A DNA stretch of 33,895 nt, from contig JAUSCK010000131.1 in the NCBI GenBank assembly GCA_030651035.1, positions 1-33,895 on the forward strand, in the 5' to 3' direction. Below the pieces are notes generated by a model. It made no database searches. It was not told the origin of the DNA and saw only the letters and a program-made list of their open reading frames with translations. The number at the start of each line of letters is the position of its first letter. Positions within the stretch are counted from its first letter, which is position 1. The DNA is from Elusimicrobiota bacterium. Lineage in GTDB: Bacteria > Elusimicrobiota > Elusimicrobia > Elusimicrobiales > UBA9959. Shown one piece after another: positions 616-25,356 of this stretch. The position numbers and the translations under genes are program-made.

Positions 616-1767
616 TTATTTCAAAAGGCCTACCAGGTTGCGGTCCAGCACCAGCGAGATCACGGCTCCCGCAAAGATCCACAGCGCGAAGGGCCTGCCG
701 CGCACCACCTCCACCTTTGAGTCGGGCATGTTCAGCTTGGCCAGCCAGATCTTCAGCTCCCCTACCTGCTCAGCGGTAAGGCCGTCCTTGAAACAATCGT
801 CGAAGGCGCCCTCGAAAGCCGGGTTGTCTTTCAGCGTGCGCGCGGCCTTCACTGACAGCATCACCCCCGGCTCAAGCTCGCGGGCCGTGAGGTAATACAT
901 GTCTTTTTTCTCCATCAGGAACTCCAGCATGAAGCGGCCGAAGAAAAGCAGCAGGGTGAACCTGAAAACGTTCCGGAGGGCTCCGCCGGCCAGCAGCCAC
1001 AGATGCTCCGGGAAGTAGAAGTAACCGCCTATGAAATAAAGCGCGTAGCAGGCGGCGCTTATGTAGGCCCAGCGCCGGCTGCTGAACACCCGCCCTATCT
1101 TGTCCCACAGCATGAACAGGAAGAAGAACAGTATGTCGACCCGGCTGAAGAACCGGCCGAGGAAGCCGTGGACCTCCATCGCGAAGACCTGCTGCAGCAG
1201 GAAGAGAAAGCCCATGTTGACCAGGCAGGCGGCCGCGGTAAATTTATTTTTTCCGGAGTTCAGGACGGCCATGCGCTTTTTTATGTCGCCCCAGACCTCC
1301 GCGAAGAAATCCGCGGGAGAGGCGGAATAGAACCCGGTGGCTATGAAGCTGCCGAGTATCCACAGCGCGGCCGCCACGAAGATGTTTATCAGCAGGCTCA
1401 GAAAAAGGTAGTGCGGGAAGTTGCGCAGGAAAGGGTTGGCCAGCGGCAGGGCGGCGGAAACCAGGATGAAGAACTTTGCGTCGCCCGCGGGCCACACCTC
1501 CGCGTACCAGAGTATCACCCCGGCCAGCGCCGACCAGAAAACATGGATGGCGAGCATGAGGTAAAAATTGTAGTTCATGAAGCTCTGCGCGCGCCCGGCG
1601 TAGCCGAGCCAGGTGTAGAGCAGGAAAACCGCCAGCCCGGCGGCGAACAGCCTGAGCCCGGTCTTTATGGAGGCGTGGGTGATCTTCCTGGTAGCCATGT
1701 CGTGGCTTACCACGGAAGCGGCCCAGGCGGTGAAGATCGCGAGGAAGATCAGCGATACGCTCTTCAT
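616..1767 (-). CDS. Prepilin-peptidase-like (GxGD, A24-type) membrane protein
   Basis: This is a polytopic membrane protein of 383 residues. The N-terminal part (about 1-145) resembles type IV prepilin peptidases: D23 in HDMATRKI matches the first catalytic aspartate (family pattern D-x-x-x-R-x-I), and D96 in PAGDAKFF matches the GxGD motif, with the first glycine replaced by proline. Prepilin peptidases cut leader peptides at the cytoplasmic face of the membrane. The zinc-binding N-terminal domain of full PilD enzymes is absent. About 240 residues follow with further membrane segments and a soluble stretch (about 285-360) before a final hydrophobic helix, which is unusual for the family. The ATG overlaps the stop of the upstream HxsC-like radical SAM gene by 4 bases (ATGA), implying coupled translation. 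A role in processing a modified precursor is inference. Confidence 0.65.
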   Translation of the reverse strand: MKSVSLIFLAIFTAWAASVVSHDMATRKITHASIKTGLRLFAAGLAVFLLYTWLGYAGRAQSFMNYNFYLMLAIHVFWSALAGVILWYAEVWPAGDAKFFILVSAALPLANPFLRNFPHYLFLSLLINIFVAAALWILGSFIATGFYSASPADFFAEVWGDIKKRMAVLNSGKNKFTAAACLVNMGFLFLLQQVFAMEVHGFLGRFFSRVDILFFFLFMLWDKIGRVFSSRRWAYISAACYALYFIGGYFYFPEHLWLLAGGALRNVFRFTLLLFFGRFMLEFLMEKKDMYYLTARELEPGVMLSVKAARTLKDNPAFEGAFDDCFKDGLTAEQVGELKIWLAKLNMPDSKVEVVRGRPFALWIFAGAVISLVLDRNLVGLLK

Positions 1768-2651
1768 AGTTTCCTAAGTTCGGAGTCGCCGAACATCTTG
1801 TGATACTCCAGCATCAGGCCGAGGCATTTCCGCCTGAGCCGGCAGCCGCGGCAGGCCGCCGGGTAGATCCTGTCTTCCGGGGGCAGCGTCACCCGGCACA
1901 GCGGCCTGAGCTCCGGCCTGACCTGGCAGAGCGGGAAATGGTAAAGCCTGAGATCGCCGAAGCGCTTGATAAGCGGCAGGGCGGCGTCTACGACCTTCGA
2001 GGAAGCCGAGAACTTAAGCCCCACGGAGGGGTGGTTTTCAAGCGACATCCCCTCTATCTCGTAATGGATGACCGTCACGCTGTAGGCCCCGGTATCCGGG
2101 AAAGTCCTGAGCAGGAACTCCAGCGTCTTCCGGAAACAGGGCAGGCTTTTTTTGTGCAGCACCAGGCGTATCTCCACCCTGAGGCCTTTCCCCAGCTCGA
2201 AAAGATTTTTAAGCCCGGCCACGGTCTGGCTGAAAGCGCCACTCACCCCGGCTACGGCGTCGTGGGCGCGCGCCGAGGGGCCGTGCAGGGCTATGGCCAC
2301 TGAAAAAGGCGGCCTGGCCTCGCGGCAGAACTTTTCTGCGAACTTCCTGTCGGAGAACCGCCGGCCGTGCGAAAGCAGCGTGATGGGCACGCCCGGCAGG
2401 CGGCGGCGGAAATAGGCCAGCAGCTGGAAAAAGTCGGGATGGATGGTGGGTTCTCCCCCCGTGAGATTGACGAAGCCGGCGAGGTCGGAGTTCTTCAGGT
2501 ATATCCGCCCCTCGCCCTTGAGGTAGCGCTCCAGCTTCTCTATCTGGGCTTTAAGGCGGTACTGCGAGGAGTCCTGCAGGGCGAAGGACCCCATGTTGGT
2601 GCACATGACGCACTTGTTGTTGCACTTGTTCCAAATGGCTATATCGGGCAT
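1764..2651 (-). CDS. HxsC-like radical SAM protein
   Basis: This radical SAM enzyme of 295 residues has cluster motif C10-x3-C14-x2-C17 (CNNKCVMC), TGGEPTIHPDF, and a C-terminal CRGCRLRRKC group likely to bind part of a second cluster. CNNxCxMC, the segment VEIRLVLHKKSLP and the LCQVRPELRP region closely recall HxsC, one of the two maturases of His-Xaa-Ser systems; that match is from memory of the family, not a search. There is no adjacent HxsA or HxsD, but an HxsB-like gene lies immediately upstream (2783-4222) beyond a hairpin repeat. No Shine-Dalgarno sequence is seen before the ATG at 2651; the upstream bases are AT-rich. The gene overlaps the prepilin-peptidase-like gene by 4 bases. Confidence 0.8.
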   Translation of the reverse strand: MPDIAIWNKCNNKCVMCTNMGSFALQDSSQYRLKAQIEKLERYLKGEGRIYLKNSDLAGFVNLTGGEPTIHPDFFQLLAYFRRRLPGVPITLLSHGRRFSDRKFAEKFCREARPPFSVAIALHGPSARAHDAVAGVSGAFSQTVAGLKNLFELGKGLRVEIRLVLHKKSLPCFRKTLEFLLRTFPDTGAYSVTVIHYEIEGMSLENHPSVGLKFSASSKVVDAALPLIKRFGDLRLYHFPLCQVRPELRPLCRVTLPPEDRIYPAACRGCRLRRKCLGLMLEYHKMFGDSELRKL

Positions 2652-2782: not shown

Positions 2783-4222
2783 TCAGGAGGCGTTTCCTTT
2801 TTGCAGCCAGGCTTCTATTATTTTCCTGGTCTTTTTCTTCTCCAGCAGGGCGAAAACGGTCTTGAACATCCCTTTCTGCAGCGCGCACCAGGAGCCGACC
2901 CTGATGTTCCCCCACGGCGAGCCCTGAGTGGCGTAGTTATGCACCGGGCAGACCCCGCAGAAAGGCTTGAAGGCGCAACGCGCGCAGTACGGCTGGTTTT
3001 CCAGGCAGGAGGCCATGGCGCAGACCCTGGCGGCCGGCGCCGTCATCAGTTCCTCGAACCGGTCGGTGCGCACATTGCCCAGCCGGAAGAAGTCGTCGCC
3101 GCAGGCGGCCACCATGCGGCCCTCGTCGCAGGTGTACACGTCGCCGTTGAAATTGTAGGCCAGCTGGCCGATGGCCGCGCCGCACGGCGAGCGCAGGTCC
3201 AGGAAGCTGGGGTCTTCAGCGCGCAGGATCTTGCGGGCCAGCAGCGCGGCGTTCCGCTCCACGAAATTCTCGCCGGCGGCGTTCACTTCCATGATGTAGG
3301 CGAGGGAGGCGCGGTAGAAGCCCAGGAACTCCTCCGGGCCGTAGCCTATGTCCGGCCATACGCCGGCGGCGTAGCCTATGGGCGAAAGCGGCCTCAGGAA
3401 GATCCCGCCCAGGCCCAGCCCCCGGTATTCGTCGACTATGCCGCGCGGGTTCTTCAGTGAGAGCCGGGTGGTGGTCATCAGCGCGGAAGGCAGCGCGTCG
3501 GCGCGCCCATCTTTGCCGGCGGCAGCCGCGAATTTTTTAAGCCAGTGCACGGCTTTCGAATGCGAAGACCCGCCGGACCAGCGCCGGTTGGCGTCGTGCA
3601 GCCCGGCAGGGCCATCCAGGGAGGTGCAGACGGACACGCCTTCAGCTACAAGGAACCTGAATTTCTCCTCGTCCATCAGGCTCAGGTTCGTAACTACGGA
3701 GAGCGCGAGGTCTTTGCCTTTTTCAAGGTTCAGTTTTTTCGCGTAGAGGACGGTCTCGGCCAGCACCGGCCAGTTCAGCAGGGCTTCGCCGCCCTGGAAC
3801 TCCAGCGAGATCTTCTTATTGGGCGAGGAAAAGGCGGTGTCCACCGACTTAAGCGCGGTGGCGCGGCTCATGTCCGTGTTCTTCCCCGCCGCGCCGGCGG
3901 TAGCCCGGCAGTAGACGCAGGCGTGGTTGCACTTCAGAGTAAGCACCAGTATGTGCAGGCCCGGCCCCTCGTAAACCCCGGCCGAGAGCCCCCTGGCCCG
4001 CGCGGCCGCGCTCTCGAAATCAAGCCGCCCGCGCAGAAGGCCGGCCGTCCCGAGCCTGCGAAAAAGAGGTGAGTTTTCCTTGACCTTCCCCGCCCTGAAA
4101 AGCATGAATTCCGGCCGGGTCAGCCGCAGCGCCGCCCCGAAAGGGCTGCTCACGATATAACCGGCGCCGTCCTGTTCGAAATTAAAATCAAAAGGCTCGG
4201 AGGGATTTTGTGCGGTTTTCAT
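2783..4222 (-). CDS. HxsB-like radical SAM/SPASM protein
   Basis: This protein of 479 residues has a radical SAM core with C98-x3-C102-x2-C105 (CNHACVYC) and EFQGGEALLNW, then SLDGPAGLHD, and an intact C-terminal SPASM domain: C347-x12-G-x4-C365, C413-x2-C416-x5-C422-x2-C425 and C446, enough for two auxiliary 4Fe-4S clusters. SPASM enzymes usually modify ribosomally made peptides. The N-terminal 80 residues and the GPGLHILVLTLKCNH entry to the core match the HxsB at 23448-24908 along the full length. It is the last gene of the seven-gene coupled operon; its ATG overlaps the stop of the PP-loop gene by 4 bases. It is the only SPASM paralog in region I that keeps all auxiliary cysteines. Confidence 0.88.
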   Translation of the reverse strand: MKTAQNPSEPFDFNFEQDGAGYIVSSPFGAALRLTRPEFMLFRAGKVKENSPLFRRLGTAGLLRGRLDFESAAARARGLSAGVYEGPGLHILVLTLKCNHACVYCRATAGAAGKNTDMSRATALKSVDTAFSSPNKKISLEFQGGEALLNWPVLAETVLYAKKLNLEKGKDLALSVVTNLSLMDEEKFRFLVAEGVSVCTSLDGPAGLHDANRRWSGGSSHSKAVHWLKKFAAAAGKDGRADALPSALMTTTRLSLKNPRGIVDEYRGLGLGGIFLRPLSPIGYAAGVWPDIGYGPEEFLGFYRASLAYIMEVNAAGENFVERNAALLARKILRAEDPSFLDLRSPCGAAIGQLAYNFNGDVYTCDEGRMVAACGDDFFRLGNVRTDRFEELMTAPAARVCAMASCLENQPYCARCAFKPFCGVCPVHNYATQGSPWGNIRVGSWCALQKGMFKTVFALLEKKKTRKIIEAWLQKGNAS

Positions 4223-4941
4223 TTTTTACTCACCAGGCCGCGGCGCCTGCGGCCGCGGGCTACCCTGAATTTTTCTACCTTCAGCTGTTCCTGCCCGCCT
4301 ATCCGCCCCGTGGCCAGCTTCAGCGGGATCACCCGTCCGGCGAAGGCCGGGCTCTCCAGCACCAGCGTCTGCAGATCGCTGCCGTCTACGGTGCGGCCGG
4401 CTTTCTTTTCAGCGGTGATATAAGCGAGGAATTCTCCGTCCATCTCCCGGCCGAGCCAGCGCCTGTCCACTTTTTTAAAATCAACGCCCGTAATGAGGGC
4501 GCGCACACCCAGCTTCAGGCAGAGCCGCACGGCGTAGACCAGGTCGAAGCCTATCACCGGGGCGGCCAGGCCGAACCCTGCCCTGGCTGCCGCCTTCCGC
4601 CAGGAGTCTATCTTCCCCCCGCAGCGGCAGCGCGCCACGCCCGAAACCAGCGTATCCGCCCCGCAGGCTTCGCGGGCCGCGCGCGCCATCAGGGCCACGT
4701 TCCGGGACAGGGCTTTTACCCTGAAGCCCGGCCCCGTCTTTATGACTACCGCCGGGACCCCGAGCAGCCGGGCGTGGGCCTCTACTATCCCCGGCTTCCG
4801 GGAGTCGTTGAAATATTCCTCGTGCCTGGCGCCGCCGTCGAAACTTACAAGGCAGGCGATCTCCGCTCCGGAGGAGGCAGCTTCCAGCAGGGCCAGGTGG
4901 GAATCCTTGCCGCCGCTGTAAATTACCGCGCACTTCTTCAT
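4219..4941 (-). CDS. PP-loop ATPase, Dph6/DUF71-like (ATP_bind_4)
   Basis: This protein of 240 residues starts CAVIYSGGKDSHLALLEA; SGGKDS (9-14) is the PP-loop that binds ATP and releases pyrophosphate. The later GVDFKKVDRRWLGREMDGEF segment is typical of the diphthine-ammonia ligase (Dph6) superfamily, which adenylates a carboxyl group and converts it to an amide. In classical members an EGGEFETLV-type motif follows; here the aligned stretch is VDGSDLQTLVLESP (185-198), with the acidic/GG part lost, so substrate or chemistry may differ. The ATG at 4941 was chosen over an upstream one at 5055 because it begins the conserved fold and overlaps the preceding stop by 4 bases. Placement inside a radical SAM operon suggests amide formation on a shared substrate; that is inference. 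Confidence 0.8.
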   Translation of the reverse strand: MKKCAVIYSGGKDSHLALLEAASSGAEIACLVSFDGGARHEEYFNDSRKPGIVEAHARLLGVPAVVIKTGPGFRVKALSRNVALMARAAREACGADTLVSGVARCRCGGKIDSWRKAAARAGFGLAAPVIGFDLVYAVRLCLKLGVRALITGVDFKKVDRRWLGREMDGEFLAYITAEKKAGRTVDGSDLQTLVLESPAFAGRVIPLKLATGRIGGQEQLKVEKFRVARGRRRRGLVSKK

Positions 4942-5855
4942 TTGCCTCCCGCTTTCTTTTTCGCGATACAGGGTTTGAATTCGTCCCAGCCGTAGAGCTC
5001 CGGGTACTCGCGCCAGGGGCCTTCGCAGACCTTGAACCATTTGCAGGGGCGGCATTCGGGGCGCTTGACCTTACCCTCGTCGCGGCGGTAATCCCCGTAG
5101 CTTTCGAGGTAGAGGTTCGCGTCGGAGACCGGGCCTTCCGGGATCACGCGCTCGGCCACGCAGGCCTCGTAGCCCTTCATCAGGCAGAACGGGATGGCCT
5201 CGGTGTAGCAGGGAACGCCTTTCTTCAGGCCCACGTCCAGCGCCTTCTTCAGGTACGGCATCACATCGGTCTTCTTAGGCGTAAGCCATTTGCGGTTTTC
5301 CCAGGCCGCGCCCACCAGGTGGACGAAAGCGAACTGGAACTGGTCCGCCTTCAGATAAACCAGCAGCTTCGCCAGCGCCGGCAGGTCCTTGTAATTGACG
5401 GAGGTGATGACGGAATTGGTCAGCACGAACATGCCCAGCTTCTTGCAATTCATTATCCCCTGCACCACTTCCTTGAAGCTCCCCTTGGCGTGGGTGAGCC
5501 CCTCGTGCATCCCGGGCGTGGAGCCGTGCAGGGAAGGCCCCATCTCGGTGACCCCGGCTTTTTTCAGCTCGGCGCAGTAATCGTAGTAGGCGAAGCGGCG
5601 GCCGTTGGTCTGCACCTGCACGCTTTCATAGCCCAGCGCCCGGGCGGCGCGCACGGCGGCCGGCAGATCGGGATGGATGGTGGGCTCGCCGCCGGTAAAG
5701 ACCACGGCGCTGACACCGGTTTTCCTGGCCCGCACCAGGTCCGCCTTTATTTCGGCCAGGCTTTTGCGCTTGGCGATGGAGCGCTTCGCTCCCTGGGCGC
5801 AGAAATCGCACATATTATTGCAGTTGAACCCGATCTTGATGTCTATCCGTTTCAT
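4938..5855 (-). CDS. Radical SAM protein with C-terminal Cys motif (HxsC-like group)
   Basis: This protein of 305 residues has C12-x3-C16-x2-C19 (CNNMCDFC), FTGGEPTIHPDL, a SLHGSTPGMHEGLTHAKGSF stretch and, near the end, IPFCLMKGYE followed by CRPCKWFKVCEGPW and a GWDEFKPC tail. The CX2CX5C group with the earlier PFC cysteine could hold an auxiliary cluster. The order of motifs is the same in the genes at 8335-9345 and 9342-10424. This version is closest to radical SAM proteins that are widespread in bacteria and archaea and mostly have no assigned substrate. It follows the SPASM-like gene 5862-7256 after a 6 base gap and overlaps the PP-loop gene by 4 bases. Confidence 0.87.
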   Translation of the reverse strand: MKRIDIKIGFNCNNMCDFCAQGAKRSIAKRKSLAEIKADLVRARKTGVSAVVFTGGEPTIHPDLPAAVRAARALGYESVQVQTNGRRFAYYDYCAELKKAGVTEMGPSLHGSTPGMHEGLTHAKGSFKEVVQGIMNCKKLGMFVLTNSVITSVNYKDLPALAKLLVYLKADQFQFAFVHLVGAAWENRKWLTPKKTDVMPYLKKALDVGLKKGVPCYTEAIPFCLMKGYEACVAERVIPEGPVSDANLYLESYGDYRRDEGKVKRPECRPCKWFKVCEGPWREYPELYGWDEFKPCIAKKKAGGK

Positions 5856-5861
5856 AAAGCG

Positions 5862-7256
5862 TCAGTCATACTTTTCCGCCCATTTTTCCAGCAGCTTCCT
5901 GTCGCCGGGCCGGCTCAGCTTATTGAAAATAATATCAAATACACCCATGAAAATGCGGCACCGCTGGCTGGTCATCATGTCGCCCCAGAAGCTGCCCTGC
6001 GCCGCGTAGTTGTAGACCGGGGAGACCCGGCAGTAGGCGCTATACGGGCAGCGCGCGCACCTGGGCTGGGACAGGCGCGGAAAACACGACAGCAGCAGCG
6101 CCCTGCCCAGAGGTGAGGAGACCATCCCGCCGAAAGAGCCGGTCACGGAGCCCAGCCTGAAGAATTCGTTCCCCCCGGCGGCCAGCAGCCTGGCCTCGTC
6201 CGAACCGTAAACGGAACCGTCCGGCCCGTAGGCCAGCCGGTAGAGCAGGTCCAGGTTCTGGTAGCGGGGGCGCTCGCCGCTCACGATGTGCTTGATGAAC
6301 ATCAGCGCGCCCTTCTCGTAAACTTCCACGCCGGAGCGGTTCAGCTTAAGCATGTAATCCAGCGCTTTTGAATAGAAAACCAGGAATTCCTCCGGGCTGA
6401 CGGCCAGGCCGTCCTTTCCGGCCGCCCGGCCTATCGGTTCCAGCGGCCCGAGCTGCACCCGCTTTATACCGCGCTTCAAAAATTCGTCCACGATCTTTTC
6501 CGGGTACGGCAGTGAGAACCTGGTGACCGTGCAGATGGCGTTCAGCGGCTCTATTCTACCTTTCGCCGCGAGTTTAGTCGCCAGGGCTATGCCCCGCACG
6601 GCGGCGGCATGGCTGGAACCGCCGGAGAACTTCCGGGCGCGGTCATGGAGGGACGCGGGGCCGTCCAGCGAGGTGCAGAGCGTCACGCCGCGGGAGGCCA
6701 GGTATTCAAGCTTCTCAGGGGTCAGGGCGGCCAGGTTGGAAACCATCGAGAAATGGACCTTGCGGCCCTCTTTGGCGGCGCGGCGGCCGGCTTCCTCCAC
6801 CAGGCATTTGACCACGCCGAAATTACGCAGCGGCTCCCCGCCCTGGAATTCTATGACCAGTTCCTTCGCGCCGGCCTTGAAAATAAAATCCAGCGTTCTT
6901 TTAGCCGTAGCCAGGGACATGTGGCGGCCGCCGGCCGAGGCCGAAGCCCCGCAATAGAGGCAGGCGTGGTCGCAGTCGCCCGTCACTGCCACTATATGCA
7001 CGTGCGGCCCGGTCCAATCCTTCAGCAGGGCGGCGGAATGCCCCGGCATAAGCGTCTCGAAATCCAGGCGGTCCCGAAAGAAACCGCGCGACAAGAGCGT
7101 CTCCGCGGTTGCGGCGGGCAGGGCGACCCCGGCGGCGAAGTCCGGCAGCTCCGCGGCCTTTATTTCGGCGCTCATGGAAAAATCGTTGGAGACCAGGCAC
7201 CGGCCGCCCCGGCGGGCGAAATTAAAATCCGAAGGCTTGTTCTTCCCGGGCGGCAT
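5862..7256 (-). CDS. HxsB-like radical SAM protein with degenerate SPASM domain
   Basis: This protein of 464 residues has radical SAM motif C95-x3-C99-x2-C102 (CDHACLYC), VIEFQGGEPLRN and SLDGPASLHD. It aligns end to end with the HxsB at 23448-24908, including the closing GDRKLLEKW. The SPASM cysteines are partly gone: the first pair, seen elsewhere as PCGAAIG and YTCDEGR, is here LLYRLAY and YGSDEAR (351-356). CX2CX5C (C400, C403, C409) remains, the next cysteine is S412 (CRVSPVYNY), and the last (C433) is kept. The core motif is intact, so it may still cleave SAM, but two normal auxiliary clusters are unlikely. It overlaps the upstream stop by one base (TGATG). Confidence 0.87.
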   Translation of the reverse strand: MPPGKNKPSDFNFARRGGRCLVSNDFSMSAEIKAAELPDFAAGVALPAATAETLLSRGFFRDRLDFETLMPGHSAALLKDWTGPHVHIVAVTGDCDHACLYCGASASAGGRHMSLATAKRTLDFIFKAGAKELVIEFQGGEPLRNFGVVKCLVEEAGRRAAKEGRKVHFSMVSNLAALTPEKLEYLASRGVTLCTSLDGPASLHDRARKFSGGSSHAAAVRGIALATKLAAKGRIEPLNAICTVTRFSLPYPEKIVDEFLKRGIKRVQLGPLEPIGRAAGKDGLAVSPEEFLVFYSKALDYMLKLNRSGVEVYEKGALMFIKHIVSGERPRYQNLDLLYRLAYGPDGSVYGSDEARLLAAGGNEFFRLGSVTGSFGGMVSSPLGRALLLSCFPRLSQPRCARCPYSAYCRVSPVYNYAAQGSFWGDMMTSQRCRIFMGVFDIIFNKLSRPGDRKLLEKWAEKYD

Positions 7257-8338
7257 CAGATATACCCCTTTTTAAAAAGCCCGATAAGGCGCTTCAGGTA
7301 AGCTTTCATGGCCGGCTCTGAGGCGGAGCGGGCGATCAATTCCCTCGCGGCTTCCAGGCAGACGGCCGTGCGCAGGGCGTGGGCCCGGCTGCCGTCCGCC
7401 ATACCCGGCAGGCGGTAATAGGCGCCGACGCAGGCGGCGCAGCTCCGGGAGCCGGCTACGGGCCTGCAATCCCGGAAGCGTTCTATTAAGCCATCCCGCG
7501 CGGTGCCGATGGCCGCGGCTTTCCGCTGGGCGCCGGTCCTCAGGAACGGGTAAGGATAGAAGGAAAGCGTCCCGTCGGGAAAAAGTTCCAGGTCCCTCAG
7601 GAACGGGCAGAAAGCATCTGAGTATTCCTTGTCGCGGAAGAACTCGAGCAGCGGCTCCAGCACCACCGGCTTGCCGGCCGCGGCGCGGGCCAGCGTGAAC
7701 CCGGCCATCTTCCTCATCCCCGCCTCGAAGGCGGCGTAATCCGCCAGCTTCCAGGGAAAGCCGTGCACACATTCTATCCCGATATTGGTGAAGCCCAGCT
7801 TTACCAGCCGCAAGAAATCCGTATAGGCCGCCCCGGCGCGGCGGGGATGCACGCACAGTATCACGTGCAGGTTCTCGCCCATGGTCGAGATGAAAAGCGG
7901 GATCCTGCCCGCCACCGCGGCGTGCGAGCCTTTGCCGGAAATAAATTTGCGCGACAGGTCGTGGCTGCGGCCGCTGCCGGAGAAGCTGACGGCGAACCTT
8001 ACGCCGCGCTCCGCCAGCCAGCCCAGCTGTTCGGGCCCGGCCAGCACGCCGTTGCTGGCCACGGAGACGGCCAGGCGCTTGCCCAGTTTTTTAACCCGGG
8101 CCCGGGCTGCGGTTATTATCTCTTTCACCAGCCCGAATTCCATCAGCGGCTCGCCGCCGTAGAGCTCCAGCGTCTTCATCATGCCCGGGGAAGCCAGGAA
8201 GGCGTAAACGGCGCGGAGTGCGTCCTTGAGCGGGATGGTTTCGGTCCTGCTCTTGTCTATAAAGCAATGCGTGCACCTCAGGCAGCAGCCCGACGTCACG
8301 GCTATCTTGAATTTCAGGACTTCCTTGTTGAACTTCAT
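7256..8338 (-). CDS. Radical SAM protein, shortened HxsB-like
   Basis: This protein of 360 residues has its cluster motif almost at the N-terminus: C18-x3-C22-x2-C25 (CCLRCTHC), then LELYGGEPLMEFG. The segment SHDLSRKFISGKGSHAAV parallels the HDRARKFSGGSSHAAAV segment of the neighbouring HxsB-like protein, so it belongs to the same group but lacks the roughly 80-residue N-terminal domain. The SPASM-like region is reduced: C244 is present, its usual partner after G-x4 is Y261, and C300-x2-C303 is followed by arginine where the next cysteine is expected. The gene overlaps both neighbours (4 bases upstream, 1 base downstream). The substrate is unknown. Confidence 0.85.
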   Translation of the reverse strand: MKFNKEVLKFKIAVTSGCCLRCTHCFIDKSRTETIPLKDALRAVYAFLASPGMMKTLELYGGEPLMEFGLVKEIITAARARVKKLGKRLAVSVASNGVLAGPEQLGWLAERGVRFAVSFSGSGRSHDLSRKFISGKGSHAAVAGRIPLFISTMGENLHVILCVHPRRAGAAYTDFLRLVKLGFTNIGIECVHGFPWKLADYAAFEAGMRKMAGFTLARAAAGKPVVLEPLLEFFRDKEYSDAFCPFLRDLELFPDGTLSFYPYPFLRTGAQRKAAAIGTARDGLIERFRDCRPVAGSRSCAACVGAYYRLPGMADGSRAHALRTAVCLEAARELIARSASEPAMKAYLKRLIGLFKKGYI

Positions 8339-9345
8339 TTCATCTTCTTTAAAATGATCTCCGCCCGCTTCAGCCTGTTATGCGACGGGAACAGCGGGAA
8401 GGGAACGGCCTCTTTCCTCACCGGCCTGAATTCATCCGGCCCGAAAATATCGGAATACCATTTCTCGAAGCCCATGCAGCGGGAGTCGTAAACGCAGTCC
8501 CGGCAGCTTTTGTTCTTCAGGCAGAGGCGCTCTTTAAGGCCGTGGATCCGCTCTTCTTTCCCGTCTATGTGGAAAAGCGGCTCGTCGTCCTGCGCGGCGG
8601 AGGGGCGCTCCCACTCGGCCATCAGGTGCGCCGCTTCGGGCAGGTTGCACGGGCAGAAATTCACCAGCACCGAATCCTCGATGACCGCGCCTGAGCTCCG
8701 GAGGTACTCCAGCGCCTCCCGCACGTAAGGGACGGCCTGGGTGACGCTGACCTTCAGCTCGGAGGCACGCTTGGCCATCATGCCGTTGTAATGCGGGAAG
8801 ATAACGTTGAAATCCTCGATGCCGAAACGCCCGCTGATAATTTTCAGGAGGCCGGCAAGGGTTTTGTAATTCGGTTTGGTCAGCGCGTGGTTGACGGAGA
8901 TCTCCGCGCCGAGGCGGGTGAGGTTCTCGAAGGCCTTCATGACTTTTTTGAAGGCCCCGGGCACGCCCACCAGCGCGTCATGCGTTTTAGCGTCGGGGCC
9001 GTGCACGGAGACGCGGAAAATATTGGCGCCGGCCTCCACCAGGGTTTTCGCGTAGGCGGGGTCCGCCAGCTTCAGGCCGTTGGTCATCACCTGCACGTAG
9101 GGGTAGCCCATGGACCGCGCGAGCCGGACTATCTTCGGCAGGTCGTCGCGCATGGTTATTTCGCCGCCTATCAGGTAGGCCACCCAGCATTTCTCGCGGC
9201 GGCCTTTATACAGGGCTTCGGCGGCTTTCCCGAAGGGCATCCGCTCGGCCACTTTGTTCAGCACGGACTCGGGGTGGTAGCAGAACTTGCATTTCGCGTT
9301 GCAGTCGTAGTTGAGTATGATTTCGCAGTTGCGCGGTTTTATCAT
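8335..9345 (-). CDS. Radical SAM protein with C-terminal CX2CX5C motif (HxsC-like group)
   Basis: This protein of 336 residues has C15-x3-C19-x2-C22 (CNAKCKFC), IGGEITMRDDL, SVHGPDAKTHDALVGVPGAF, then VNFCPCNLPE and CRDCVYDSRCMGFEKWY with a GPDEFRPV tail. It is a clear tandem paralog of the next gene upstream (9342-10424): both carry the VLVNF-x-PC-x-LP block, the CX2CX5C block and an EFRP ending at the same relative positions. The cysteines probably hold an auxiliary cluster; that is inferred from the pattern. Overlaps of 4 bases on both sides indicate coupled translation. Confidence 0.87.
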   Translation of the reverse strand: MIKPRNCEIILNYDCNAKCKFCYHPESVLNKVAERMPFGKAAEALYKGRREKCWVAYLIGGEITMRDDLPKIVRLARSMGYPYVQVMTNGLKLADPAYAKTLVEAGANIFRVSVHGPDAKTHDALVGVPGAFKKVMKAFENLTRLGAEISVNHALTKPNYKTLAGLLKIISGRFGIEDFNVIFPHYNGMMAKRASELKVSVTQAVPYVREALEYLRSSGAVIEDSVLVNFCPCNLPEAAHLMAEWERPSAAQDDEPLFHIDGKEERIHGLKERLCLKNKSCRDCVYDSRCMGFEKWYSDIFGPDEFRPVRKEAVPFPLFPSHNRLKRAEIILKKMK

Positions 9346-10424
9346 TTGTTCGCCTCGAAAAGGGTCTTTACGGCGAAGGAGCGCGGGACCTTGGCCAGCG
9401 GCCTGAACTCGGAGCCGCCGGCTATGGCGAGGTATTCGGCGTCGATGCCGCGGCAGCGGGAATCCAGCGCGCAGCCGGCGCAGCGCTTCGTCTTGGCGCT
9501 CTGCTCGTTTTTCATCTCGGCCATGTTGACTATGACGCCGTCGGCCGGCATCAGCGGGTCGCCGCCGGCCGTGTCGGACTCCCAGTCGGCCAGCAGGTTC
9601 ATATACCGGGGCAGCAGGCAGGGTGTAAAATTGACCAGCACGCGGTTCAGCGCGGGGATTCCGGAAGCCTCAAGGACCTTGAGGCCTTTTTTAATGAAGG
9701 GAAGGGTCCCGGATATTTTCACCTTCAGGAGCTTCTCGTTGCGGGCCATCACGCCGCGGAAATGGCCGTAGATGATGTTGTAATAGTTGATGCCGAGGCC
9801 GTTATAGGCGAAGTCGAGGAAAGCGGGGAACTGGCGGTAATTGAGGGCGTTGATGACCTGGTTGGTCCCTACCTCGCGGCCCAGGGCGCGGATGTTGCCT
9901 ATTCCGCGCACGGCCTTGTCGAAGGCGCCGGGCACTCCGACCAGCCGGTCGTGCAGGGCGGCGGTGTGGCCGTGCAGGGAGATGTCGAACATGTTGAAGC
10001 CGGCGGCGGCCATTTCAGCGGCGTAGGCGGGGTCGGCGAGGCGCGCGCCGTTGGTGCAGAGTTTGACGCAGAGGTAGCCCGCCTTGCGGGCGAAGGAGGC
10101 TATTTTATCGATGTCGCCGCGGAGGGTCGGCTCGCCGCCTATTATGGCGGCTATCCAGCAGCCCTGTTTGCGGCCGAGGTAGAGGGCTTTGAGTATTTCT
10201 TCCAGCCTGGGTTCCGGGCCTTTGGCGAAGGAGCCGGGCTCGGCGTAGCAGAAGAGGCACTTATTGTTGCAAGCGGAATTGGCGGTGACTTCGCAGACCT
10301 TGGCCTTCAGGCTGACGGGCCAGCTGATATTGGCGAGGCGCGCGGAGAACGCGGCCCTGTCCAGGCCGGGCATTCTGCCCAGCGCGTACTTAAGATTTTT
10401 TTCCAAAAAAGGATTCATCAGCAT
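9342..10424 (-). CDS. Radical SAM protein, first gene of the seven-gene operon
   Basis: This protein of 360 residues has a 40-residue N-terminal extension before the core, then C52-x3-C56-x2-C59 (CNNKCLFC), IIGGEPTLRGDI, SLHGHTAALHDRLVGVPGAF, VNFTPCLLPRY and a C-terminal CAGCALDSRCRG with GGSEFRPL. It is a tandem paralog of 8335-9345. The ATG at 10424 is preceded only by a weak GCGGA; an in-frame ATG at 10418 is a second possible start. An inverted repeat (AGTCCGC at 10425-10431 with GCGGACT at 10455-10461) abuts the start codon and could influence initiation. As the promoter-proximal gene it probably sets expression of all seven. Confidence 0.86.
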   Translation of the reverse strand: MLMNPFLEKNLKYALGRMPGLDRAAFSARLANISWPVSLKAKVCEVTANSACNNKCLFCYAEPGSFAKGPEPRLEEILKALYLGRKQGCWIAAIIGGEPTLRGDIDKIASFARKAGYLCVKLCTNGARLADPAYAAEMAAAGFNMFDISLHGHTAALHDRLVGVPGAFDKAVRGIGNIRALGREVGTNQVINALNYRQFPAFLDFAYNGLGINYYNIIYGHFRGVMARNEKLLKVKISGTLPFIKKGLKVLEASGIPALNRVLVNFTPCLLPRYMNLLADWESDTAGGDPLMPADGVIVNMAEMKNEQSAKTKRCAGCALDSRCRGIDAEYLAIAGGSEFRPLAKVPRSFAVKTLFEANK

Positions 10425-20512: not shown

Positions 20513-21652
20513 CTATCCGCTTTTTCCGACCGGCGGCAGGTCAGGATTATCAGAGCCCATTCCCGCCGAGCGCAGCGCGCTGACTATATCGGCGCTGCTC
20601 TTCAGCAGCGCCTTAAGGTCGCCGGGCTCGAGCAGGTTCTTGTAATAGATACAAAGCAGGCAGGCTAGAAAATCGCGCTGCCCGGAAGCCATTACCGCGC
20701 TGAAAGCCCGCTCCCTGGAGGCGCGCACTTTTTCCAGGTCAAGGCCGGAGCGCCAGTCGCCCACGGCGTAGGCGGCCCGCAGGGCGGGGTCCTGGGCCGC
20801 GCGGGAAGCTGAAATTATCGAGCAGGGGTAAAACACCCCGTCGGGGCCGATGGAGACCTCGCCCTGCGCGCAAAAATGTTCAAGCCAGGCCCGGCCTTTT
20901 CCCAGGCGCTTATAGCCGAACTTAGGGGTTTCCGCGAAGGCGCCGCGGCCGGCGCCCTTGAAATAGAGCGCGGCCTTGCGCAGTTCCCGCCTCAGCGCCG
21001 CGAGGTCGCGCGCGCTCCACGCCTCCTGCACCGCGAAGGAAAGGCCCAGGTCGCCGGCGCCGAGCGAAGCGAGGAACCTGACGTTCTCGGCCAGGCGCGG
21101 GGCCGTAGCCTTCGTGACCGTGGTGGAAATGCCGAGCGCTTTCCTGGCCGCCGCCGGCAGGGCCCGGATGTTCCTTATTACCCGCCGGAAACTGGGCCGG
21201 CCGGCGCTCGTGACCCTGTTCAGGTTGTGGCTGAAGGAAGCGCCGTCCAGGCTGATCTTAAGGTGTATGGCGCTGCGCCTGAAAAGCCCGGCGGTGGGCG
21301 CGTCCAGCAGCAGCCCGTTGCTGAAGCACTCTATCTCCACCCCGGGGCCGACGGCCTTCCTGAGCCAGGGCAGCAGGCCGGCCAGCAGTTTTTTATCCAG
21401 CAGCGGCTCGCCGCCGGAAATGCTTATCTTCTCCACCTTGCCGCCGCGCGCCGCGCGCAGGTAATGCAGCACGGCCAGCTTCATCCGGCGCAGGTCCAGT
21501 TTTTGCGCATGGGCGCGGTCGAGGTCGCCGGAATAGCAATAGCGGCAATGCATGTTGCACTGGTTGGAAACGCAGATATCAAGCTCCGCCGGCAGGCGGC
21601 CTGGGGCCGCCGGCGCGGAGCCGGCTGCGGATTTGCGGGCTGGGGATGACAT
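20513..21652 (-). CDS. Radical SAM protein at the end of the His-Xaa-Ser operon
   Basis: This protein of 379 residues has motif C32-x3-C36-x2-C39 (CNMHCRYC), ISGGEPLLDKKL and ISLDGASFSHNLNR. The C-terminal region has CAQGEVSIGPDGVFYPC, which fits the first half of a SPASM domain (C-x10-G-x4-C), and a later CLLC pair, so one auxiliary cluster is plausible. It takes the place that HxsC holds in typical Hxs operons but lacks the CNNxCxMC motif, so I regard it as a different maturase. A Pro/Ala-rich 20-residue N-terminus precedes the core. It follows the repeat peptide gene after 102 bases that contain a GC-rich hairpin, and probably acts on that peptide or on the HxsB product. Confidence 0.82.
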   Translation of the reverse strand: MSSPARKSAAGSAPAAPGRLPAELDICVSNQCNMHCRYCYSGDLDRAHAQKLDLRRMKLAVLHYLRAARGGKVEKISISGGEPLLDKKLLAGLLPWLRKAVGPGVEIECFSNGLLLDAPTAGLFRRSAIHLKISLDGASFSHNLNRVTSAGRPSFRRVIRNIRALPAAARKALGISTTVTKATAPRLAENVRFLASLGAGDLGLSFAVQEAWSARDLAALRRELRKAALYFKGAGRGAFAETPKFGYKRLGKGRAWLEHFCAQGEVSIGPDGVFYPCSIISASRAAQDPALRAAYAVGDWRSGLDLEKVRASRERAFSAVMASGQRDFLACLLCIYYKNLLEPGDLKALLKSSADIVSALRSAGMGSDNPDLPPVGKSG

Positions 21653-21754: not shown

Positions 21755-22066
21755 CTAGCACCACCCGCCCCTTGCGTGCGAGCCGTGCGAGGAGTGGCTG
21801 GAATGCGAGCCGTGGCTGCCGTGGGAAGAATGCGAGCCGTGCGACCCGTGAGAGCCGTGAGAGCCGTGGCTCTGGTGGCTTGTGTGAGCCGTTTGAGAGA
21901 AGAAGTTCTGGTGTATCGTCTGCGCGCTGGCCTGGTCCACCATGACAGCGCCCAGAAGACCAAGGGCCAGCCCCGTCTTCACTATGTCCGCGTCCAGCAT
22001 CTTTCCCTCTTCGCTGTTGAGGAAGAGCTTGATATTTTTACCGACGTTTTGTTTTTTCTTTTTCAT
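21755..22066 (-). CDS. His-Xaa-Ser repeat precursor peptide (HxsA-type)
   Basis: This peptide of 103 residues has a basic N-terminus (MKKKKQNVGKN), a hydrophobic stretch about 31-45 ending in ASA (46-48), a possible signal peptidase site, then from residue 61 twelve uninterrupted H-x-S triplets (x is T, Q, G or S) to residue 96, and the tail HARGGWC. HxsA-type peptides are the presumed substrates of the radical SAM maturases HxsB and HxsC, although the chemistry of modification is not known to me. AGGAG lies 6 bases before the ATG at 22066, a strong ribosome site that fits a product needed in quantity. The terminal Cys is not something I recall for the family. The gene lies 12 bases after the Cys-rich protein gene. 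Confidence 0.88.
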   Translation of the reverse strand: MKKKKQNVGKNIKLFLNSEEGKMLDADIVKTGLALGLLGAVMVDQASAQTIHQNFFSQTAHTSHQSHGSHGSHGSHGSHSSHGSHGSHSSHSSHGSHARGGWC

Positions 22067-22078: not shown

Positions 22079-23137
22079 TCACTCTTTGCCAAGGAGTTTC
22101 TTGGCTTGTTTGTTGATTTCCGCTATTCTCTTCTGCTCTTCTTTTTTAGCCTCTTCCGCGAGCTTCTTCTGGCTGTCGCCGGACTGCTCATGGGCGGAGA
22201 GAGACTGGCAATAGATCCCGCCCAGCTTTTCGAGGATAACAGAACAGGAGGTCGGGGACTTTGTAAAGAACGCGGCGCACTCGCTCATGTATTTTTCCGG
22301 GCAGCCGGACAGGTTGTTATCCTTGAGGGCGCTGTAAAGGCTGACATTATCAAGGCAGTCGGCGTTGCTGCAGTCGTCCCTGTTGCTGGGGAAGGCCTGG
22401 CGGCATTTGGCCTTGTTGTTGCCGGCCTTGGGGTGATTGCAGACGAAGGCGAAGCCCTGGGCGGCCCCGGTGCAGAACTCGGGCGGCACTTTGGCGCCGG
22501 TCACGTTATCCCCCTCGAAATATCTATGGCAGGGCAGCTCGCTCTTGAACTTGCCGGCGGCGTAGGCATAGAACAGCACCTTGACCGAGGGGTCCACGCA
22601 CTGGTAGTTGGGGGTAGTGAAATATTTATCCAGCTTATGCTGCACGCCGGGCACGTAATTGCACATGTCGAGGTCCCCGTAAACCACGGCCTGGCAGGAA
22701 AAGAACTTCGCCAGCAGGCCGTAAACGGCGTCGTTCTCCGGCTTGGTAAAAGCTTCCGGGCTGTACGCGGAATAGCCCCAGACTTTACCGTGGGAGGCCA
22801 GGATATCGTTGAGGGATTTGCCGGCGCAGAGCGTCTGCTTCGCGAACTCGGCCGGGATAGCGGCGATGGCTCCCCTTGCGGCCTTGGCGGCGGGCGGCGT
22901 AAAAATTGTCTTCGCCGAAGGTACGGCGAATTTAGCGGGCTCCGCCACTCCTTCGGGCGACGCGGCGTAAGCGGTGGACTCGGCGGGCAGGGACACCCCG
23001 CCGGGGATGTTCTCGGCGCTTTGGCCGGGCGTCAGGCCAATATCTATCGGCGCCGCGCTTTTCCGCTGCATATACTGCAGGAATAGTATCACCGCGAGGA
23101 TCCCCACGATAATTATGATAACTGGCTTTTTCATCAT
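22079..23137 (-). CDS. Cys-rich membrane-anchored protein of the Hxs operon
   Basis: This protein of 352 residues begins MMKKPVIIIIVGILAVILFL, a single membrane anchor or uncleaved signal. An Ala/Pro-rich linker follows, then about 230 residues with 14 cysteines (for example FSCQAVV, DMCNYV, FVCNHP, DDCSNADC), suggesting disulfides outside the membrane, and a charged Lys/Glu-rich C-terminal helix (about 322-352). I do not recognise the family. The ATG at 23137 overlaps the HxsD stop by 4 bases; the neighbouring ATG at 23134 is better spaced from AAGGGG and may be the true start. It lies between HxsD and the repeat peptide, so a role in export, display or oxidation of the modified peptide is possible, but that is inference. 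Confidence 0.75.
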   Translation of the reverse strand: MMKKPVIIIIVGILAVILFLQYMQRKSAAPIDIGLTPGQSAENIPGGVSLPAESTAYAASPEGVAEPAKFAVPSAKTIFTPPAAKAARGAIAAIPAEFAKQTLCAGKSLNDILASHGKVWGYSAYSPEAFTKPENDAVYGLLAKFFSCQAVVYGDLDMCNYVPGVQHKLDKYFTTPNYQCVDPSVKVLFYAYAAGKFKSELPCHRYFEGDNVTGAKVPPEFCTGAAQGFAFVCNHPKAGNNKAKCRQAFPSNRDDCSNADCLDNVSLYSALKDNNLSGCPEKYMSECAAFFTKSPTSCSVILEKLGGIYCQSLSAHEQSGDSQKKLAEEAKKEEQKRIAEINKQAKKLLGKE

Positions 23138-23451
23138 TTCCCCTTGTTCTTCGCTTGTATTTTCTCGCCGCAGGCCGACAGCAGCGCCTTGGTCACGATA
23201 ATGCCGGCTATCCTGGAATTCTTTTTTGCCAGGTCTATCCTGCACTGCTGGTTCAAAGCTTCGTTGGCCAGTTCCCCGGCCAGGTTTTCCAGGTCAGCGG
23301 CCCCGTCCAGCTGGACGCGCGTGGCCTCCTTCCCGGGCAGCACCTTCGCGCCGCATCTCCCGGAGAAAACGTACGCCGCCAGCTCCACGGCCTCTCTTGA
23401 ATAGACCGCGGTCTCAAAAACCAGCTCTTTGCCGCTTTTAACGTCCTTCAT
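23134..23451 (-). CDS. hxsD: HxsD, His-Xaa-Ser system accessory protein
   Basis: This protein of 105 residues has ETAVYSREAVELAAYVFSGR, a middle strand set and GELANEALNQQCRIDLAKK followed by IIVTKALLSA. This matches the HxsD pattern I know: a small alpha/beta protein with VYS-x-EA-x-x-AAY and an L-x-NE block. HxsD has no known catalytic residues and may act as a carrier or recognition partner of the radical SAM maturases. The ATG at 23451 was chosen because it overlaps the HxsB stop by 4 bases; the ATG at 23466 is an alternative. A second, divergent HxsD-like gene lies upstream of HxsB. Confidence 0.82.
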   Translation of the reverse strand: MKDVKSGKELVFETAVYSREAVELAAYVFSGRCGAKVLPGKEATRVQLDGAADLENLAGELANEALNQQCRIDLAKKNSRIAGIIVTKALLSACGEKIQAKNKGK

Positions 23452-24908
23452 TGCTTCACCGTCCATTTCTCCAGGATTTTCCTATCCCCGGCGTTCCTGA
23501 GCTTCGAGAAGAGCACGCCGAAAACGCCCTTAAAAAGCCTGCACCTGTCGTTCGACCGCATGTTTCCCCAGAGCGACCCCTGGGCCTCGTAGTTGAATAC
23601 CGGGCAGACCCCGCAGTACGGCTTATACGCGCAGCGGGAGCAGTCGGGCTGCGCCTCGAGGTTGGAGGAGACCACGCAGGCCCTGGCGGCCGGGCTTGAA
23701 AGCGCCTGCTTGAGGGTGCTTTCGAAAACGCTGCCGATGCGGAAAATATCGTCGCCTTCCCACCCGACCATACGGCCCTCGTCGCAGGTGTAAAGGTCGC
23801 CGTTGTAGTTGTAGGCTATCTGGCCGATGGCCGCGCCGCAGGGGCAGCGCGCGTCCAGGTAGCCGGGCTCGCGGAAGTTAAGGATCTTTTCCAGCATCAT
23901 GGCCGCCATCTTCTCGCGTATGACGACCCCGCGGCGGTTCAGTTCGAGTATATAGTCAAGGCACTTCCCGTAAAAAGCGGTGAACTCAACCGAGGTGTAG
24001 CCTATTTTTTCCCAGAGGCCCCTGGCGTAGCCTATGGGCGCGAGCGGCCTGACAAAGATGTCCTCGAGGCCGAGGCCCGTGTATTCGTCTATGATCTCCT
24101 TGTGCCTGGAAAGGGAATAGCGCGAAACGGTCAGCAGGGCGCTCGATTTGAAAATTCGGTATTCGGGGACCTGGTCCCCGTGTTTCTTCTGGAAATATTT
24201 CAGCCACTTCACCGCGCCCGCGTGGGAATTGCCGGCGGCGTAGATGCGGTTCCTGTTGTGCAGGTCCGCGGGCCCGTCGAGGGAAGTGCAGATGGAGACT
24301 TCGTTCTCAAGGAGGAACCGCGCCTTCTCCTCCGTCATCAGCGTGAAATTGGAAACCAGGGCCAGCTTCAGTTCTTTTTTTGAAGCCGCCGCTTTTTTGC
24401 GCGCGTGCTTCACCGCGGCCGTGAGCACCCCCCAGTTAAGCAGGGGCTCTCCGCCCTGGAACTCTATGGTAATGACCGGGCTGGGAGAGCTGAAAGCGAA
24501 ATCCACGCTCTTCAGCGCGGTCTTAAGGCTCATATCGGTCTTTTTGGCGCCTTCGCCCGCGGCGCTGGACTGGCAGTAAAGGCATTTATGGTTGCACCGG
24601 AGGGTGAGGACCAGGATGTGAAGCCCCGGGCCGTAGCTAAGGTGCGCGTTGCGGGTCCGCCACTTCGCGGCGAGCCCCTCCAGGTCCATGCGCCCGCGCA
24701 CGAACCCCCCGGCGGAAAGCTCCGCGAAAAGCGGGTCGCCCTCCGCGACCTTGCCGCTGATCACGCGCCCGAAGTTTTTTTCGCTGACCCAGGCGTGGCA
24801 GCCGGCCTCGTTGGTCAGCAGCCTGCCGCCGTCCATCTTTTCCCAGAGCGCCTGCGGCGCCGGAGAGGAAAGCTTCTTTTTATTTCCTGCGGGTTTTTTT
24901 ACCAGCAT
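23448..24908 (-). CDS. hxsB: HxsB, His-Xaa-Ser system radical SAM/SPASM maturase
   Basis: This protein of 486 residues has an N-terminal domain (about 1-95), the radical SAM core with C105-x3-C109-x2-C112 (CNHKCLYC) and EFQGGEPLLNW, SLDGPADLHN, then a complete SPASM domain: C357-x12-G-x4-C375, C423-x2-C426-x5-C432-x2-C435 and C456. HxsB with HxsC is predicted to modify the H-x-S repeats of HxsA. The match to HxsB rests on this architecture and on the adjoining HxsD and repeat peptide genes. It overlaps the upstream HxsD-like gene by 29 bases and HxsD by 4, showing tight coupling. Two closely related paralogs occur in region I (2783-4222 and 5862-7256). Confidence 0.9.
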   Translation of the reverse strand: MLVKKPAGNKKKLSSPAPQALWEKMDGGRLLTNEAGCHAWVSEKNFGRVISGKVAEGDPLFAELSAGGFVRGRMDLEGLAAKWRTRNAHLSYGPGLHILVLTLRCNHKCLYCQSSAAGEGAKKTDMSLKTALKSVDFAFSSPSPVITIEFQGGEPLLNWGVLTAAVKHARKKAAASKKELKLALVSNFTLMTEEKARFLLENEVSICTSLDGPADLHNRNRIYAAGNSHAGAVKWLKYFQKKHGDQVPEYRIFKSSALLTVSRYSLSRHKEIIDEYTGLGLEDIFVRPLAPIGYARGLWEKIGYTSVEFTAFYGKCLDYILELNRRGVVIREKMAAMMLEKILNFREPGYLDARCPCGAAIGQIAYNYNGDLYTCDEGRMVGWEGDDIFRIGSVFESTLKQALSSPAARACVVSSNLEAQPDCSRCAYKPYCGVCPVFNYEAQGSLWGNMRSNDRCRLFKGVFGVLFSKLRNAGDRKILEKWTVKQ

Positions 24909-25356
24909 ACTTGTCTTCCCAGGTTTTCGTTATGCCTAAAGGGTCTCTCTGCCGGCCGCTCCGCGCGTCCTTCTTTATCTCGCTCTCCACCTGCGCTATA
25001 AGGTCTTCGAGCTCTTTTTCCTGTTCTGCGGTAAGGCAGGAGTCCGAGGCGGGCTCCGGCTTCTTCCCGGGGGCGAGCGCCTTCATCACCAGGAATTCGC
25101 GCAGTTCTCTGTTATTGTCGGTGACGGCCTCCCGCAGCTTCTCGTCGGCCAGCTCGGCCCGGAAAGCGGCGGCGATGGCTTTGCCGGTCGCGGCCCCGGC
25201 GGGGGTAAAATCCGCCACGGCCGCGCCGGGCCCGTCCAGCCTTATGAAAACATGGGCCGCGCCGCTCGAGGCGTACGCGGCGTAGCGTATAGTGTCAAGG
25301 TTATAGTCCTTGAGGCTGACTGACACTGAAACCGTTTTGTTTTTTTGGCTTTTCAA
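24880..25356 (-). CDS. Divergent HxsD-like protein with helical C-terminal extension
   Basis: This protein of 158 residues has VSVSLKDYNLDTIRYAAYAS, which mirrors the YS-x-EA-x-x-AAY block of HxsD, and LREAVTDNNRELREFLVMKA, which mirrors its C-terminal half, so the first 100 residues look like a second HxsD. The remaining 58 residues (LTAEQEKELEDLIAQVESEI and a basic tail) are predicted helical and absent from the other copy. The start is TTG at 25356, supported by GGAGG (25362-25366) five bases upstream. Two HxsD-type proteins flanking HxsB might form a heteromer or serve different maturases; that is inference. Confidence 0.72.
   Translation of the reverse strand: MKSQKNKTVSVSVSLKDYNLDTIRYAAYASSGAAHVFIRLDGPGAAVADFTPAGAATGKAIAAAFRAELADEKLREAVTDNNRELREFLVMKALAPGKKPEPASDSCLTAEQEKELEDLIAQVESEIKKDARSGRQRDPLGITKTWEDKYAGKKTRRK

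What the first reader, a model, noticed from the sequence alone, without database searches (positions are those of the whole stretch)
5862..8338. Two adjacent HxsB-like proteins have lost auxiliary-cluster cysteines while a third keeps them
The gene at 2783 has all seven SPASM cysteines. The gene at 5862 lacks the first pair and has serine for one more (S412). The gene at 7256 has lost the N-terminal domain and two SPASM cysteines (Y261, R309). All three keep the radical SAM motif. This pattern suggests specialised or pseudo-enzyme partners.
Basis: seen in the sequence. Interest (0 to 1): 0.65.

Follow-up and report, generated by a model that had tools for sequence, protein, structure and literature searches.

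The report
Peptide-modifying enzyme missing one iron-sulfur cluster
In a large gene cluster of a poorly known bacterium, one copy of a radical enzyme that probably modifies a histidine-serine-rich peptide has lost all binding sites for one of its three iron-sulfur clusters; the loss is ancient and maintained, arose several times, and goes with a partner enzyme and a new tail on the peptide, which suggests a specialised enzyme pair rather than a decaying gene.

Summary
The gene at 5862 is an HxsB paralog lacking exactly the three SPASM cysteines that ligate auxiliary cluster I, while all four Aux II ligands, the radical SAM motif and the Asp-Glu beside the lost ligand remain. The pattern holds in 27 of 27 orthologous genomes seen, under purifying selection. 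HxsB Aux I loss needs at least three changes on the tree. The gene at 7256 is not specifically HxsB-like; it is a separate CteB/PapB-like enzyme without N-terminal domain and with its own invariant cysteine set. In 294 Elusimicrobiota genomes, Aux I-less HxsB (types A/B/C), the 7256-type enzyme and an HxsA ending in (C)RGGWC coincide: each pair 33 together, 1 and 1 apart, 259 neither. Best reading: a specialised two-enzyme module for GGWC-tailed HxsA, resembling TrnC/TrnD of thuricin CD. Not decay; product chemistry unknown.

The parts
5862..7256 (-). HxsB paralog without Aux I: radical SAM C95/C99/C102, Aux II-type C400/C403/C409/C433 kept; S352 and S412 and a 5-aa deletion in place of the Aux I cysteines; D353/E354 kept
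   Evidence: model pLDDT 83.3 matching anSME and CteB
7256..8338 (-). 7256-type radical SAM enzyme, no N-terminal domain, invariant C18/C22/C25 plus C162, C190, C244, C291, C300, C303; overlaps the next gene by one base (TGATG)
2783..4222 (-). intact HxsB (all seven SPASM Cys)
   Evidence: 447.2 bits to TIGR03978, cut-off 370
23448..24908 (-). second intact HxsB, next to HxsD- and HxsA-like genes
   Evidence: 477.8 bits to TIGR03978
21755..22066 (-). HxsA4 repeat peptide (SHGSHGSH...), C-terminus ARGGWC with its only Cys as last residue
   Evidence: 68.2 bits to NF038313, cut-off 55
23134..23466 (-). HxsD-like small protein
   Evidence: TIGR03976 38.4 bits, below cut-off 50
24880..25356 (-). 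second HxsD-like protein
   Evidence: TIGR03976 34.5 bits, below cut-off 50
1764..2651 (-). HxsC-like radical SAM protein
   Evidence: TIGR03977 153.2 bits, below cut-off 267.9
4938..5855 (-). HxsC4-like radical SAM protein, directly downstream of 5862
   Evidence: NF038332 143.6 bits, below cut-off
8335..10424 (-). two more HxsC4-like radical SAM genes (8335-9345, 9342-10424) in the same overlapping run
20513..21652 (-). PapB-like radical SAM gene with twitch-type Cys C261/C277/C331/C334

Best explanation
Gene 5862 is a functional radical SAM enzyme of the HXS system that has permanently given up auxiliary cluster I while keeping the SAM cluster and Aux II. It works as one half of a module with the 7256-type enzyme on an HxsA whose tail ends in GGWC. 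Likely division of labour (inferred): 5862 brings the N-terminal peptide-binding region that 7256 lacks and presents HxsA; with no Aux I it cannot bind a substrate thiol there or take the product electron there, so its own reaction, if any, is redox-neutral or hands the electron elsewhere; 7256, with its single rearranged auxiliary site (C244/C291/C300/C303), does the chemistry on or near the tail Trp-Cys. Shown: Cys pattern, conservation, selection, co-occurrence of the three genes/features. Inferred: cluster occupancy, physical pairing, the target residue, division of labour.
For: Loss is confined to Aux I: 41 of 41 intact HxsB keep all seven SPASM Cys (one is cut at a contig end before the last) against 14 of 14 5862-type lacking the same three; in the wider set of 169 rows 41 have 0 of 3 and 4 have 1 of 3 Aux I Cys, and all 169 keep four Aux II Cys (rows as in 64). 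Ligand assignment: PapB AC1 = C352/C370/C421, AC2 = C408/C411/C417/C440 (PMC10470005); anSME Aux I = C255/C261/C276/C330 (PMC6231123); the HMM alignment sets 5862 S352-D353 against an anSME Cys-Asp and C400/C403/C409 against its CX2CX5C. D366/E367 invariant in 55 of 55. dN/dS 0.09-0.26 in six pairs. Fold: anSME Z 33.1, CteB Z 33.1 over residues 10-454; 7256 matches CteB from its residue 90 on, i.e. without the N-terminal domain. Co-occurrence 33/1/1/259 in 294 genomes for each pair of: Aux I-less A/B/C, 7256-type, GGWC-tailed HxsA; inside genus g1, 10 of 22 have all three and 12 have none. Prediction confirmed: the two strong 7256 carriers not yet known to hold Aux I-less HxsB (G080, G082) both did. 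One-base overlap TGATG of the two genes. TrnC/TrnD precedent.
Against: The genes mostly lie in one cluster, so cassette inheritance alone could give much of the co-occurrence. G261 (=G087) and the second HXS locus of G259 have a GGWC tail and 7256-like genes but, in the HxsB sequences read there, only intact HxsB, so Aux I-less HxsB is not needed for that tail. Aux I-less types F (G077, G081, G090, G318), G189 and D (L165, L174) occur without 7256, and F and G189 without GGWC. Only 10 of 25 A-type pairs lie within 112 bases; 2 are on different contigs and two are about 30-35 kb apart. Two Aux I-less carriers show no intact HxsB: G061, a complete chromosome by its title, and G066. No biochemistry exists here; even HxsB function was only called putative in the one relevant paper found.
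Confidence: 0.5

Rival explanations
1. 5862 acts as a dedicated partner of an intact HxsB (2783 or 23448 type), as TrnD does for TrnC: a paralog that binds leader peptide and holds the complex, whose own SAM chemistry is dispensable.
For: Same kind of Cys asymmetry as TrnC/TrnD, which form a 1:1 complex and where TrnD SAM chemistry is dispensable (PMC12093266 passages); every 5862-type genome read also has an intact HxsB.
Against: Catalytic motifs are fully conserved in 5862; G061 and G066 have Aux I-less HxsB (other types) but no intact one found; intact HxsB also occurs in many genomes without 5862, so its presence is uninformative.
Confidence: 0.25
2. 5862 is an active enzyme catalysing a redox-neutral step by itself (for instance epimerisation), for which Aux I is not needed.
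For: Proteusin epimerases have only the SAM cluster (PMC8326336 passages); the barrel Cys C242 is invariant in 14 of 14 5862-type and Leu/Met in 38 of 41 intact HxsB, a possible H-atom donor; Aux I loss without 7256 in types D and F.
Against: No activity data; a Cys at the place of C242 also stands in anSME, which is no epimerase (alignment); co-occurrence with 7256 is then unexplained.
Confidence: 0.15
3. Relaxed constraint or pseudogenisation of a redundant paralog.
For: HxsB is multi-copy; pseudo-radical-SAM HxsB paralogs exist (L104, L105, L110, L245).
Against: dN/dS 0.09-0.26, 27 of 27 orthologs with the same pattern, invariant catalytic residues.
Confidence: 0.04
4. The three features travel together only because they sit in one mobile or frequently lost cassette; they have no joint function.
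For: Most lie within one locus.
Against: Two lineages with different HxsA tails (RGGWC; CRGGWC-N/C-PRC) and different HxsB types (A; B and C) show the same link; other cluster members such as the B12 radical SAM genes vary between relatives.
Confidence: 0.06

Closest known systems
HxsB, His-Xaa-Ser system radical SAM maturase (TIGR03978)
   Same: 5862 falls within the HxsB tree and matches over residues 11-460 (318.8 bits)
   Different: below the curated cut-off of 370; lacks all Aux I ligands
TrnC/TrnD of thuricin CD (PMC12093266, passages read)
   Same: two radical SAM enzymes, one with seven SPASM Cys and one with only a CX2CX5C plus one later Cys, i.e. the Aux II-type set (my reading of the printed residue numbers; the authors call it a twitch domain)
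   Different: sactipeptide system, TrnD has an RRE; here the closest genetic partner is 7256, and the substrate is an HxS-repeat protein
CteB / anSME / PapB (SPASM enzymes)
   Same: overall fold and Aux II ligand pattern
   Different: these have both auxiliary clusters
Twitch enzymes (BtrN, SkfB, MoaA)
   Same: one auxiliary cluster expected
   Different: they keep the Aux I site; 5862 keeps the Aux II ligands and loses Aux I, the reverse (PMC6231123 passages). 7256 is closer to twitch in its CX2C but with an atypical third ligand candidate C291

Membership tests
HxsB (TIGR03978) | 5862: score above the curated cut-off 370 bits | tested here: not met
   318.8 bits
HxsB (TIGR03978) | 5862: full-length alignment and place inside the HxsB tree | tested here: met
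   residues 11-460; 22-row clade among HxsB rows, support 100
HxsB (TIGR03978) | 7256: HxsB as best family and above cut-off | tested here: not met
   62.7 bits, seventh of 49 families
SPASM domain | seven-Cys motif for two auxiliary clusters in 5862 | tested here: not met
   4 of 7 Cys; 3 Aux I positions lost; no Pfam SPASM hit
SPASM domain | SPASM-enzyme fold in 5862 | tested here: met
   model residues 82-464 on anSME, Z 33.1, 359 aligned
Twitch domain | Aux I ligands present, Aux II part absent (5862) | tested here: not met
   opposite pattern
Radical SAM superfamily | CxxxCxxC and GGEP | tested here: met
   invariant in both gene families; Pfam PF04055 43.4 and 39.4 bits
HXS system | HxsA-type repeat peptide plus HxsB, HxsC, HxsD together | tested here: met
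   HxsA4 and HxsB above cut-off; HxsC- and HxsD-like present but below cut-off
TrnC/TrnD-like two-enzyme maturase | stable complex of intact and Aux I-less paralog | not testable with these tools
   single-chain prediction only
TrnC/TrnD-like two-enzyme maturase | Cys asymmetry between paralogs | tested here: met

The most novel reading that the evidence does not exclude
Aux I is an optional, repeatedly discarded module in HxsB, and its loss marks a switch of substrate: a two-enzyme system (Aux I-less HxsB plus a radical SAM enzyme without N-terminal peptide-binding domain) evolved to modify a Trp-Cys tail on HxsA, with the substrate gaining cysteine(s) as the enzyme lost them. Whether the substrate thiol takes part in binding metal at the vacated site, or Aux I was lost so that the tail Cys would not be captured by it, is open.
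Probability: 0.3. Interest if true: 0.8.

Novelty: new variant of a known kind. Interest (0 to 1): 0.6.

Why it matters
The separate roles of Aux I and Aux II are open; a 2021 review says the role of AuxII remains unclear (PMC9012708 passages). A natural, evolutionarily stable series of HxsB paralogs with both clusters, with Aux II only, and with Aux II but no SAM cluster (as judged from ligands) would let these roles be separated without destabilising mutants (the engineered PapB cluster knock-outs were unstable, PMC10470005). The linked change in the HxsA tail gives a concrete place to look for the modification in a system whose product is unknown as far as the searches here show.

Tried and rejected
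Sequencing error or decay of 5862: rejected (27 of 27 orthologs share the pattern; dN/dS well below 1). Pseudo-enzyme status for 5862 or 7256: not supported (motifs invariant). 7256 as a decayed HxsB: rejected by family scores. Obligate pairing of Aux I-less with intact HxsB: weakened by G061 and G066. Replacement Aux I ligands in 5862: none of its invariant Cys (A1: C95, C99, C102, C194, C242, C400, C403, C409, C433) sits near the hairpin, going by sequence only. HxsA for type D loci: a search for His-rich small ORFs found no clear one. Papers: searches listed nothing on Aux I-less HxsB or on this Elusimicrobiota cluster; this covers only the open library. The phylogenetic tests used quick trees (SH-aLRT, no bootstrap); no careful tree was run. 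In one search I dropped L092 and L095 (contig-end pieces), L240 (no SAM motif region, probably a fragment), L241 (very distant) and, for the tree, the four pseudo rows; one search had dropped seven rows (contig-end or frameshift pieces). Earlier trees with fragments counted as losses gave 5 and 8 changes; I use the cleaned count of 3. rows were not de-duplicated; there two rows with intact Aux I have Asp for one Aux II Cys (G161, G326) and G189, itself Aux I-less, has His for another, so Aux II conservation is not absolute.

Full report
What is in the window. The contig (33,895 bases; G000:C186) carries, mostly on the minus strand, a run of radical SAM genes around an HXS system. Near relatives of its genes lie in MAGs titled Elusimicrobia. 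Above curated cut-offs are HxsB at 2783 (447.2 bits) and 23448 (477.8 bits) and the HxsA4 repeat peptide at 21755 (68.2 bits); HxsC-like and HxsD-like proteins are present below cut-off. The finding concerns 5862-7256 and 7256-8338, which overlap by one base, TGATG.

The observation. In an alignment of 55 HxsB-family proteins from the window and relatives, the 41 intact HxsB keep C347, C365, C413, C416, C422, C425 and C446 (2783 numbering), except one cut at a contig end before C446; the 14 of the 5862 type all lack C347 (inside a 5-residue gap), have Ser at C365 and Ser, Asn, Met or Pro at C425, and all keep the other four and the three radical SAM cysteines. Eight further 5862-type genes in named MAGs and five in further genomes agree in losing the three and keeping the rest, 27 of 27 in all. 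Published ligand sets for PapB and anSME (passages) place the three lost positions on Aux I and the four kept ones on Aux II. The Asp-Glu next to the lost second Cys is invariant in 55 of 55. Pairwise dN/dS among four close orthologs is 0.09-0.26, like the intact copies (0.09-0.20) and 7256 (0.10-0.24).

The gene at 7256. Its best families are PapB-like maturases; HxsB ranks seventh. It and its 13 orthologs in the relatives' sample (34-85% identical) keep C244, C291, C300 and C303 besides the SAM motif, C162 and C190. This would suit one auxiliary cluster in a twitch-like domain with an unusual ligand, an inference. AlphaFold models (14-sequence alignments) have mean pLDDT 83.3 for 5862 and 86.8 for 7256. 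5862 matches CteB from residue 10 to 454, N-terminal domain included; 7256 matches CteB only from CteB residue 90 on.

Recurrence. A GTDB scan with the 14 sequences gave 80 loci (the scan reported more than it kept). Together with later fetches, 169 full-length rows remained after removal of fragments: 124 with all Aux I Cys, 41 with none, 4 with one; all 169 keep four Aux II Cys. Besides the 5862 type (A), the losses fall into types B and C (neighbouring genes in Elusimicrobiota loci such as L105, L106, L107, L110), D (Myxococcales L165, Proteobacteria L174) and F (G077, G081, G090, later G318); the letters are mine. On a quick tree of 165 rows with the trait columns removed, the label needs three changes and starred branches force three; A and C lie together, so they may share one event. 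Four rows have lost the SAM motif and Aux I but keep Aux II (L104, L105, L110, L245). Exceptions to Aux II conservation came only: Asp in G161 and G326, His in G189.

Links. In 61 genomes (window's own and 60 relatives), 7256 orthologs occur in 14, the same 14 that hold a 5862-type gene. Among 33 genomes reached through other loci, 7256 matched in 13 of 13 Elusimicrobiota carriers of Aux I-less HxsB known by then, 0 of 2 type D carriers and 5 of 18 others. Of those five, the two strong ones (G080, G082) proved to hold types B and C; the weaker three (G079, G085, G087) did not. HxsA tails then showed a split: loci with A-type genes end in Ala/Ser/Gln-RGGWC, B/C loci in CRGGWC-Asn/Cys-PRC, loci with only intact HxsB mostly in GSY, GQW, GAW or GSW, and two F loci in HFSF. 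I tested this on one sample of 294 Elusimicrobiota genomes: 75 have HxsB (E up to 1e-60), 34 the tail pattern (the backward-read control pattern hit 7 genomes, of which only G153 also holds the tail), 34 a 7256-type gene (E up to 1e-40), 34 an Aux I-less A/B/C gene (read from sequence). Each pair gives 33 together, one and one apart, 259 neither. The odd ones: G334 (7256 broken), G315 (78% complete, no tail found), G261 (pattern read as HGSGGWC, and 7256-like; HxsB read as intact). With types F and G189 included, the figures are 33 together, 6 and 1 apart, 254 neither. Fisher p is 2e-41, but genomes are related, so the figure is not a probability of chance; the split inside one genus (10 of 22 with all, 12 with none) and the two lineages are better support. 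Not all HxsB hits of all 75 genomes were read, so an Aux I-less copy could have been missed in some.

Mechanism. Aux I accepts the product electron or binds a substrate thiol in studied enzymes (passages). An enzyme without it should do neither there. The most economical reading is a specialised module with 7256 acting on GGWC-tailed HxsA; 7256-like genes accompany the tail even where HxsB is intact (G261; second locus of G259), so 7256 is the likelier tail enzyme and 5862 its usual helper or presenter. Thuricin CD offers a tested analogue of two unequal radical SAM enzymes acting as one complex. All of this step is inference.

Novelty. The pattern is a new variant within a known kind (HXS/SPASM maturases). 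TrnD shows that an enzyme of similar Cys content exists, so Aux I-less, Aux II-bearing enzymes are not without precedent. Literature was searched only in the open library.

Noticed in passing
L104:5990-7369, L105:5402-7354, L110:6010-7275, L245:1423-2931: HxsB-like proteins that have lost the radical SAM motif and Aux I cysteines but keep all four Aux II cysteines: candidate pseudo-enzymes.
   Followed up: partly
window 21755-22066 and relatives: HxsA C-terminus classes: RGGWC, CRGGWC-x-PRC, GSY/GQW/GAW/GSW, HFSF; the class tracks the enzyme set of the locus.
   Followed up: yes
window 14495-15961 and 18266-20398; G002:C305, G011:C13: B12-type radical SAM genes inside the cluster; some relatives carry about five further B12 radical SAM genes in the same place.
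   Followed up: no
window 616-1767: Membrane protein without Pfam or NCBIfam hit, conserved beside HxsC in most relatives; its AGDAK stretch reminded me of prepilin peptidases (recalled, not tested).
   Followed up: no
window 4219-5055: Dph6/ATP-pyrophosphatase-like protein (63.8 bits, below cut-off) between HxsB and an HxsC4-like gene.
   Followed up: no
window 22079-23245: Conserved protein of unknown family between HxsA and HxsD in many relatives.
   Followed up: no
window 25396-26280: Protein with a YYPAPYGGY stretch next to the HXS genes, with counterparts at the same place in many relatives.
   Followed up: no
L104 (G061/G334): In this chromosome both the type B HxsB and the 7256-like gene appear broken (frameshifted pieces; a stop inside).
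   Followed up: partly
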